The notes beneath the pieces were generated by a model, which was not told the DNA's origin, ran no database searches, and saw only the letters and a list, made by a program, of their open reading frames with translations. Position numbers and translations under genes: made by a program. A stretch of DNA of 64,000 bases from Odontesthes bonariensis (Eukaryota; Chordata; Actinopteri; Atheriniformes; Atherinopsidae), in assembly GCF_027942865.1 (NCBI RefSeq), contig NC_134520.1, positions 4,648,501 to 4,712,500 of the forward strand, written 5' to 3'. Numbering within the stretch: the stretch's first letter is position 1; the number at the start of each line of letters is the position of its first letter. Shown one piece after another: positions 37,677 to 40,600 of the stretch.

Positions 37677-40600
37677 TCAGAGTGGATGCAGGAAGCGTTC
37701 AGTGTTGACTTTTTGTTGTTTGGAGAAGCAGGACTCCAGCCAGGCCTTCTGCACAGGAACAGCCTCGGGATACTGATACACCAGATCCTGGAGCTCCTGG
37801 TTCACACAAAATCACAGTAAAATTAAAAGTTAAGTTTTGCTTTTGGGTTAATTTATCACAGTCAAATTTTCCCTGAGAAAATGAATATCAATGTTACCTT
37901 CAGAGAACCTCAGTATGATACAAACCTTTGTGTGGATGTGGTTTTCCACCTCTGCTACAATGTGTGTGACCTCTGCAGACATCATGTCTTCCTCATCTCC
38001 ATCATACGTACACCTCAGCTAAGGAGCCGTGACGTTGTTTGGACGCTGTGACACAACTCTAACACCTCTCTGTCTTTCATGCTCAGGCTAACTATTACAG
38101 CGTTTAATCACTAGTTGTAACAAAAAGAAACACCTGAAAGGATATGTGATAAGGTAGCGAGCCAGATTTTTCCTTTCTGTTGCAAGAATGTTGTAGAAAA
38201 ATACATGGACTCCCTTCATGAAACCGGGGAGCTCCGTGGAGCCGGGGTTCTGGAATGGAGCCGAGGGGCTCGGGATTCCCGCTTCTATCTCCTCAGTTTC
38301 CTCAGAGGTAAACAATGCCGGTTCAGGGGAAGTTGTTGATGTTGCAGAGGTTGACGTTTGAGATGTAGCTGTGTTCTTGATAGCTCTTTTGTGATAATAT
38401 CTGTCAGTCAGGATAAGGAAAAATAACTTCAACAAATATCACTACTTAAGAGCTCAAATGTTGAAACATTAAAGGATACATGAATGTGGGGATGCCTCTG
38501 GAAGCTAGGTGTTTCCTGATGAGCCTCTCTGTGCCATACCAGTTGAAACCTTTGGTGGAGTGGCCAATACGAGGAAGATGGACACTCGCTTTGTTGGGGA
38601 AGATGCAAAGACAGAAAATGAGCTGTCAGCAGGGATAAGTGCGACTGTTATTGTTCTGCTCAAGCTGGAGCAAAGATCCTCTTAATGAATAATATGAAAC
38701 ATTGTGAGGAGAAAGAGAACAGAGGCAAGCATTCAAGGTCAAAGTGTTAACAAATAACTGCAGGGAATTCAGATTCTTGTCACAGTTGGTTCCACATTAA
38801 TAATGCGCATTGGCAAGATAAAACACAACCTCTCCTTCAAATCTCATCAATCAACATTATTTATGAGTTAAGCAACTTGCTTTTCTGCTCTCCAACATCT
38901 CTAATTATAAGGTTGGCAAAGAGGGATATGTTCCATCTCAGTTAATTCACCTCACGCATGATAAGTGTGCATTAAACAATGGCATTCTTTTGCTTATGTG
39001 AAATGGCTTCTGGGCATCACTATACCCTTGTTTCTCTTGGCTGCAGCATAAATCTTCTTCAAGCCTTCATCCAGAGCATTTAGAAAGATCCCTGACAAGT
39101 TGCTGACTTTGTCTCTTTGCTGTGCCACAATCAGGGCCAACTGAAGAGACAGGAAGGAACTCAAAGTTATTATCTGATCAAAGTTGCGATTTTCTTGAAA
39201 AAGGCTCGGCAGTTTTGTAGTCTTGCCACCAAACGTAGACCCAGACCAGATGCATTCAGCTGGATCGGTACGACAGCAAAGACGCAGCCCAAACTGAGCG
39301 GAACCTACTTGATCTTGGCCGTCCAGTCTGGACTGTTTGTCATCGATGGGGAAGAGCAGCACATTCCCAAGGTCCAAATCTGAAACAAATACACTTGCAC
39401 TTTAGATTTAAGATTTTATCCTCAATCAGACCTCACAAATAAAGATGTCTAACAGAGAGAATGTTCATTTTCTTTGTCATCATGGTTAATCTTACCTTTC
39501 ATCTTACCAGCCAACTCGTACTGCTTTCGTGGCTCATCTGATCTCACCTCCAGGGCAGTAAACAGGCCTCCTCTGCCCCACCGGCCTGAGTCATCTACAC
39601 AGAAAATATTACTTTGATATACGTAACATCACAGGTGTTCCAAAGAACTCAGTCTGCATAACAAGTGGCTTGTTGCCATGGCTACACAGCGAGCTTTACC
39701 AACACAGTGGACAATGATGGCATCTCCCTGAGCAGCATGTGGATGAGTAACATCCCCCAGAACGTAGCAGATATCCGTAGCGTTGGAGTCTGCAGAGCAT
39801 GTGCTGCTGTCATCCTCATCCTCTTCGTCGTCGCTGTCCGCTGGATGCAGGCAACGTGACCTGTAGCCGCAGGAGTCCCACCATGCCATTCTGCGTGATT
39901 AAAAAACAAAACAAAACAAAAGCTAATCAAATAAAAGACAAAAACATTTGTGCCAAGTTCTTAAAGGGATAGTTCGCCTCTTTTGACATGAAGCTGTATG
40001 ACATCCCATATTAGCAATATCATTTATGAACATTGACTTACCCCCTGCTGTGTCCTGTGAGCCGAGTTCCAGCCTCGTTTTGGCGTTGACGAAGGTAGTC
40101 CGGCTTGTTGGCTGGGGCCACAAATATAAAGTGTTTTGCTTCTCAAAACAATATGCGTTCAAAAGAGTAATACATTTGCATCACAAAATCGTTGTGCAGG
40201 AAAAAGTCAGACCTCACATCGCTTGGCGCTATTTTTGCCTCCCTTGATATCAATGCGTCCAATGTAAACTGTGCAGACCGAAGAGCAGACCGAGCAGTCC
40301 CCTGCTTCCGAGCAGTAAACACCGTAATAGGTGCGGCTATCGCTAGGTGGCTGGACGCATTGATATCAAGGGAGGCAAAAATAGCGCCAAGCGATGTGAG
40401 GTCTGACTTTTTCCTGCACAACGATTTTGTGATGCAAATGTATTACTCTTTTGAACGCATATTGTTTTGAGACGCAAAACGCTTTATTTTTCTAGCCCCA
40501 GCCAACTACCTTCGTCAACGCCAAACTCAGCTGGAACTCGGCTCACAGGACGCAGCGGGGGGTAGGTCAATGTTCATAAATGATATTGCTAATATGGGAT

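What the first reader, a model, noticed from the sequence alone, without database searches (positions are those of the whole stretch)
37677..38400. CHD1L ends in a BRCT domain resembling XRCC1 BRCT2
After the macro domain the last three exons continue for about 155 residues: a Ser/Thr/Glu-rich linker and then a BRCT-like fold. In order: [12 protein letters not shown] (first strand), [11 protein letters not shown] (helix 1 region), [10 protein letters not shown] (the TH(V/I)V strand) and [16 protein letters not shown] (the Trp of helix 3). The human protein as I recall it ends soon after the macro domain (897 residues; here 1018). The layout ELPGFMKG...FFYN...RKxLxRYxxxY...DEEDMMS is closest, from memory, to XRCC1 BRCT2, which pairs with LIG3. 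A remodeller recruited by PARP that also carries a repair-type BRCT would suggest direct docking to single-strand-break repair partners in fish, lost in mammals.
Basis: partly seen in the sequence, partly recalled or inferred. Interest (0 to 1): 0.72.

Follow-up and report, generated by a model that had tools for sequence, protein, structure and literature searches.

The report
Fish CHD1L carries XRCC1-like BRCT tail
In this (probably fish) genome the PARP-recruited chromatin remodeller CHD1L has an extra protein-docking domain at its end, most like the one XRCC1 uses to hold DNA ligase III, and it is encoded around two introns that look like the rare minor class; the human protein stops just before it.

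Summary
A 24-exon minus-strand gene (52450..37677, 1012 aa) is CHD1L: residues 20-881 align with human 31-892 of 897 (1239 bits), then it continues for 131 residues. Residues 917-1012 are a BRCT domain. Among PDB chain sequences its only significant matches are the four XRCC1 BRCT2 sequences (best E 4e-8; next match E 0.68). Pfam LIG3_BRCT, the partner fold, passes on the tail alone (31-32 bits) but just fails on the whole protein (26.9 against 27). Exon 22 holds both the last residues that align with human and the first third of the BRCT, so the tail is not another gene.

New here: introns 21 and 22, which flank that exon, carry exact U12-type donors, the only two on that strand in 64 kb.

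Docking to LIG3 or XRCC1 is plausible (helix 1, the known contact, is partly conserved) but untested. 'Lost in mammals' is too narrow: published lengths give zebrafish 1026, chicken 900, human 897. Loss versus gain is undecided.

The parts
37677..52450 (-). CHD1L gene, 24 coding exons, 1012 aa (SNF2 ATPase, helicase C, linker, macro, BRCT)
   Evidence: Hand-built exon model without internal stop; residues 20-881 align with human CHD1L 7enn_K residues 31-892 at 1239 bits; Pfam SNF2-rel_dom and Helicase_C
38480..39890 (-). Exons 17-21 (residues 666-860), with the macro domain from about residue 704
   Evidence: Continuous alignment with human CHD1L through its macro domain; no Pfam family matched this stretch at E 10
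38401..38479 (-). Intron 21, 79 nt, U12-type-looking GT-AG: donor GTATCCTTT 9/9, branch-like TTCCTTATC 8/9 about 12 nt from the 3' end
38146..38400 (-). Exon 22, 255 nt, phase 2-2: macro end (IYY, shared with human), Ser/Thr-rich linker, BRCT N-arm, strand 1 and helix 1
38146..38234 (-). BRCT, first segment (ELPGFMKG...[11 protein letters not shown])
38008..38145 (-). Intron 22, 138 nt, U12-type-looking AT-AC: donor ATATCCTTT 9/9, branch-like CTCCTTAGC 7/9 about 11 nt from the 3' end; interrupts the BRCT between helix 1 and strand 2
37926..38007 (-). Exon 23: BRCT strand 2 to strand 3 ([27 protein letters not shown])
37677..37796 (-). Exon 24: BRCT second half with the helix-3 Trp (WLESC, residues 992-996) and stop codon
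37449..37454 (-). AATAAA polyadenylation signal

Best explanation
In this genome (probably a fish), CHD1L (ALC1) is a SNF2-macro-BRCT protein. The macro domain is recruited by poly(ADP-ribose) and the ATPase slides nucleosomes, as in human CHD1L (established knowledge of the family). The added BRCT, joined by a linker of 53 residues (presumably flexible), belongs to the XRCC1-BRCT2/LIG3 group, whose known members pair with each other through helix 1. The most likely function is that it pairs with the BRCT of DNA ligase III, or with XRCC1 BRCT2, so that the remodeller physically brings, or is brought by, the nick-sealing module. Shown: gene structure, BRCT identity, nearest relative by sequence, U12-type donors. 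Inferred: the pairing, its partner and its effect.
For: Only XRCC1 BRCT2 sequences match significantly in the PDB. LIG3 BRCT itself matches XRCC1 BRCT2 far less well (E 0.0076) than this domain does (E 4e-8), though the LIG3 query is shorter. 27 of 82 aligned positions are identical to human XRCC1 BRCT2; by segment (limits recalled): N-arm ELPxF 5 of 8, strand 1 3 of 7, next loop 0 of 4, helix 1 (ER..L.RY) 5 of 10, helix 1 to strand 2 5 of 12, strand 3 1 of 9, helix 2 region 2 of 15, strand 4 1 of 7, helix 3 5 of 10. A review says XRCC1 BRCT2 and LIG3 BRCT bind through salt bridges and hydrophobic contacts across their helices 1 (PMC10386641, passage), and another paper notes that the linker before a BRCT matters for complex formation (PMC3195086, passage). 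Authors of one study suggest that human CHD1L acts in the same S-phase pathway as LIG3, and find that CHD1L loss makes XRCC1 and LIG3 stay on chromatin (PMC13284710, abstract and passages).
Against: Human CHD1L works in this pathway without any BRCT, so the domain is not required for that link, and a review reports that human CHD1L contributes to repair without affecting XRCC1 recruitment (PMC7934534, passage). Identity to XRCC1 BRCT2 is only 33%; helix 3, which is not the contact named in the review, is as conserved as helix 1, so the pattern may reflect the fold. The tail alone does not find LIG3 BRCT in the PDB at E 10 or better, and at 80 compared columns it shares fewer identities with LIG3 (16) than XRCC1 does (21). 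No binding data, transcript data or structure model were obtained. One genome only: no other CHD1L tail sequence beyond human could be compared.
Confidence: 0.5

Rival explanations
1. The BRCT is a homodimerisation module: two CHD1L molecules pair through helix 1 (as XRCC1 BRCT2 can with itself) and the domain has no direct contact with LIG3 or XRCC1.
For: A figure legend names XRCC1 BRCT2 homodimer interface residues (PMC3195086); the same helix-1 conservation supports this reading equally.
Against: No specific evidence against it; human CHD1L works without such a BRCT dimer.
Confidence: 0.2
2. The tail is a genuine BRCT fold but binds some other partner, DNA or poly(ADP-ribose), or is a dispensable remnant on its way to loss.
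For: Only 33% identity to XRCC1 BRCT2; generic BRCT models sub-threshold; the listed bird and mammals have a short protein.
Against: Open reading frame, exact U12-type donors, and the N-arm and helix 1 being among the most conserved segments argue against decay.
Confidence: 0.25
3. History: the BRCT was gained in the fish lineage by exon capture from XRCC1, rather than being ancestral and lost in amniotes.
For: Nearest relative is XRCC1 BRCT2; exon 22 is bounded by two introns of the same phase (2-2), as a shuffled exon would be, though it holds only the first third of the BRCT.
Against: Two U12-type-looking introns bound and split the domain; a survey supports conversion of U12-type to U2-type introns and says reconstructions trace them to the last common eukaryotic ancestor (PMC7367187, abstract and section 3), which favours an old segment unless the introns came along from XRCC1. 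The start of exon 22 aligns with the human tail, so human may keep a truncated version of the same exon.
Confidence: 0.3
4. Artefact: the last exons belong to another gene or the model is mis-spliced.
Against: Exon 22 is one open stretch holding both the human-alignable IYY and the BRCT start; the BRCT homology runs on through exons 23 and 24; zebrafish chd1l is published as 1026 aa.
Confidence: 0.02

Closest known systems
Human CHD1L/ALC1 (PDB 7enn, 897 aa)
   Same: SNF2 ATPase, helicase C, linker and macro domain align throughout
   Different: Human ends at 897, a few residues past the aligned stretch; this protein has a linker plus BRCT beyond it
Zebrafish chd1l NP_956607.1 (1026 aa in PMC7934534 Table 1)
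   Same: Length implies a comparable C-terminal extension
XRCC1 BRCT2 (PDB 1cdz, 3pc6, 3pc8, 3qvg)
   Same: Best and only significant relative in the PDB by sequence; gapless from helix 1 to strand 3; ELPxF, ERxxLxRY, G, EDxMS, W..SC
   Different: 33% identity; one residue fewer before helix 1 and three more near helix 2; attached to a remodeller instead of a scaffold
DNA ligase III BRCT (PDB 1imo, 3pc7; Pfam PF16759)
   Same: Pfam model passes its cut-off on the tail alone; shares L.RY....G
   Different: Pairwise match much weaker than XRCC1; not found by the tail alone

Membership tests
CHD1L/ALC1 | SNF2 ATPase plus helicase C closest to CHD1L | tested here: met
   Top three PDB hits are CHD1L at 1234-1239 bits; the next remodeller, ISW1, 470 bits
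CHD1L/ALC1 | C-terminal macro domain | tested here: met
   Aligned with human CHD1L to residue 892; no Pfam family, macro included, matched this stretch
CHD1L/ALC1 | Poly(ADP-ribose)-dependent recruitment | not testable with these tools
   Known for human CHD1L
BRCT superfamily | Sequence match to BRCT models or structures, conserved Trp of helix 3 | tested here: met
   XRCC1 BRCT2 E 4e-8, W992 aligned; LIG3_BRCT above cut-off on the tail alone, 26.9 against 27 on the whole protein; general BRCT models below cut-off or absent
XRCC1-BRCT2/LIG3 group | Closer to these than to other BRCTs | tested here: met
   Next BRCT in the PDB at E 0.68; a profile of the tail plus three XRCC1 sequences next finds LIG3 at 4e-4, then TopBP1-like at 0.09 (the profile is mostly XRCC1)
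XRCC1-BRCT2/LIG3 group | Helix-1-mediated BRCT-BRCT dimer | not testable with these tools
   Helix 1 identical at 5 of 10 positions; no binding assay
U12-type introns | 5' splice site RTATCCTTT | tested here: met
   Introns 21 and 22 score 9 of 9; the other 21 introns at most 6 of 9
U12-type introns | Branch-point motif close to TTCCTTRAY near the 3' end | tested here: inconclusive
   8/9 and 7/9 at about 12 and 11 nt; of the other 21 introns none reaches 8/9 but 8 reach 7/9, one (intron 19) at 11 nt
U12-type introns | Spliced by the minor spliceosome | not testable with these tools
   No RNA data

The most novel reading that the evidence does not exclude
The fish CHD1L BRCT pairs directly with LIG3 (an XRCC1-independent tether), and minor-spliceosome efficiency at introns 21 and 22 switches between this form and a human-like form: retention of intron 21 would give an 871-residue protein ending right after the macro domain, and skipping exon 22 keeps the frame (927 residues).
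Probability: 0.12. Interest if true: 0.8.

Novelty: new variant of a known kind. Interest (0 to 1): 0.56.

Why it matters
CHD1L is discussed as a drug target (PMC7934534, passage), its loss sensitises cells to PARP inhibitors, and how it acts on XRCC1 and LIG3 is under revision (PMC13284710). A form with an XRCC1-type BRCT offers a natural experiment: a possible direct coupling that, judged by length, the listed mammals and chicken lack. If zebrafish has the same tail, it is an imperfect model for human CHD1L, and minor-spliceosome mutants could affect the repair function of CHD1L through one exon.

Tried and rejected
Rejected: separate downstream gene (exon 22 joins the human-alignable end and the BRCT in one open stretch); the GT-AG reading of intron 22 (needs a 6-residue insertion and costs 10 bits); LIG3 BRCT as nearest relative (Pfam label only; XRCC1 BRCT2 itself also matches that model at 31.4 bits).

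Led nowhere: search of viral contigs for relatives, 78 pattern matches and none confirmed; the window's own genome could not be searched. Papers: CHD1L+BRCT 14 papers, passages seen in 6 of 14, none of those passages describing a BRCT in CHD1L; ALC1+BRCT domain+macro domain+SNF2 3 papers, passages seen in 2 of 3, and in those I did not look up the ALC1 mentions; XRCC1+BRCT+ligase III+heterodimer+interface+crystal structure 20 papers, 15 listed, passages seen in 2; CHD1L+zebrafish+macro domain 2 papers, one read in part, the other listing only; U12-type introns+branch point+ATATCCTTT 2 papers, one read in part, the other listing only; CHD1L+U12-type 0 and CHD1L+minor intron 0; XRCC1+U12-type introns 1, listing only; CHD1L+teleost 2, listing only; CHD1L+XRCC1+LIG3 16, of which 12 were listed, passages seen in 3 of the 16 (PMC13284710, where BRCT does not occur in the main text; PMC8294329; PMC10317172). 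So 'not described in print' holds only for this open-access library, these searches and the passages seen. Two papers on the XRCC1-LIG3 interface are not held.

Full report
What is there. On the minus strand, 52450 to 37677, a 24-exon gene encodes 1012 residues without an internal stop. It is CHD1L: the three best PDB matches are CHD1L (1234-1239 bits; the next remodeller, ISW1, has 470), aligned from residue 20 to 881 with human 31 to 892 of 897. Pfam finds the SNF2 and helicase C domains.

The tail. After the macro domain the protein keeps IYY in common with human, then runs through a 53-residue linker with 9 Ser, 10 Thr and 6 Glu, and ends in residues 917-1012, a BRCT domain. The PDB search with the last 151 residues returned seven distinct sequences up to E 10: four XRCC1 BRCT2 sequences (4.2e-8 to 1.1e-7), then a TopBP1/Rad4-like BRCT at 0.68 and two unrelated proteins at 0.82 and 1. 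0 of 2000 shuffles reached the alignment score with XRCC1. The domain is closer to XRCC1 BRCT2 than LIG3's BRCT is: LIG3 to XRCC1 gives E 0.0076, and raw alignment scores are 115 (CHD1L-XRCC1), 76 (XRCC1-LIG3) and 63 (CHD1L-LIG3), over different lengths. Against the reading: Pfam's general BRCT models do not pass their cut-offs, and on the whole protein LIG3_BRCT lands at 26.9 bits, just under 27; only the tail scanned alone passes (31.1 and 32.5). Human XRCC1 BRCT2 scores 31.4 on that same model, so the Pfam name does not make the domain a LIG3 BRCT.

Why it is not another gene. Exon 22 is one 255-nt open stretch that starts inside the Ile codon after the human-alignable TF and holds IYY, the linker and the BRCT up to helix 1. 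A polyadenylation signal lies 223 nt past the stop. A published table lists zebrafish chd1l at 1026 residues against 896-926 for six mammals and 900 for chicken (PMC7934534 Table 1).

Two introns of minor-class type. Of the 23 introns, 21 and 22 have donors that match RTATCCTTT at 9 of 9; the others reach at most 6. On the minus strand of the 64 kb these are the only two exact matches; the plus strand has two others. Intron 22 runs ATATCCTTT...GTGTAC, an AT-AC intron. Branch-like motifs sit about 12 and 11 nt from the 3' ends (8 and 7 of 9); 8 of the other 21 introns also reach 7, none 8, so this part is weak. Reading intron 22 as AT-AC gives [15 protein letters not shown], gapless against XRCC1 RYVTA-FNGELEDYMS; the GT-AG reading adds six residues and drops the XRCC1 score from 36.0 to 26.1 bits. 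A survey of U12 introns gives 22% AT-AC among zebrafish U12 introns and 0.02% among U2 introns, and reports that U12 introns cluster in the same genes in all 21 genomes tested (PMC7367187, sections 15 and 17).

How it may work. XRCC1 BRCT2 and LIG3 BRCT bind across their helices 1 (PMC10386641, passage). In the tail the N-arm (5 of 8), helix 1 (5 of 10) and helix 3 (5 of 10) are the parts most like XRCC1; strand 1 has 3 of 7, the loop after it 0 of 4, the stretch from helix 1 to strand 2 5 of 12, the helix 2 region 2 of 15, and strands 3 and 4 have 1 of 9 and 1 of 7 (segment limits recalled). Helix 3 is not the contact named in the review, so part of this pattern may be the fold. Authors of one study suggest that human CHD1L, which has no BRCT, acts in the same S-phase pathway as LIG3, and show that its loss leaves XRCC1 and LIG3 on chromatin (PMC13284710, abstract and passages); a review says human CHD1L works without affecting XRCC1 recruitment (PMC7934534, passage). 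The simplest proposal is that this CHD1L makes the link by direct BRCT pairing with LIG3 or XRCC1. This is inference; homodimerisation is supported equally by the same residues.

History. By length the short form is found in chicken as well as mammals, so 'lost in mammals' should read 'absent in the listed amniotes'. The matching start of exon 22 and the human tail and the U12-type introns favour loss by truncation in the last human exon; the 2-2 phase of exon 22 would also suit exon capture. No second CHD1L tail with a BRCT could be fetched, so this stays open.

Splice forms. If intron 21 were kept the protein would end at 871 residues, just past the macro domain; if intron 22 were kept, at 964 with part of a BRCT; skipping exon 22 keeps the frame at 927. 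Whether any of these occurs is unknown.

Verdict. A real and well-supported domain addition, not described in the passages seen in the searched open-access literature (searches listed under Tried and rejected), though probably present in database annotation of fish proteins (not checked). Interest 0.56; new variant of a known kind.

Noticed in passing
window 33896-36253 (+): A 785-residue open frame with a reverse transcriptase domain (PF00078, E 1.1e-37): an apparently uninterrupted non-LTR retrotransposon frame whose end lies about 1.4 kb past the CHD1L stop codon, on the opposite strand.
   Followed up: partly
window 39959-40644 (intron 16 of CHD1L): A nearly perfect long inverted repeat (arms of 155, 122 and 21 nt at 97, 95 and 100%), probably a non-autonomous DNA transposon in the intron before the macro-domain exons.
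   Followed up: partly
window 15022-15459 (+): Open frame with a Myb/SANT-like DNA-binding domain (PF13873, E 2.6e-16), as in transposase-derived proteins.
   Followed up: no
window 17285-17932 and neighbouring frames (+): Ser-rich repeated frame ([13 protein letters not shown]...) that by memory resembles a WWC/KIBRA-family gene; no Pfam match on this piece.
   Followed up: no
window 38146-38400: Exon 22 is symmetric (phase 2-2, 255 nt) and lies between two introns with U12-type donors, so that its skipping would keep the frame.
   Followed up: partly
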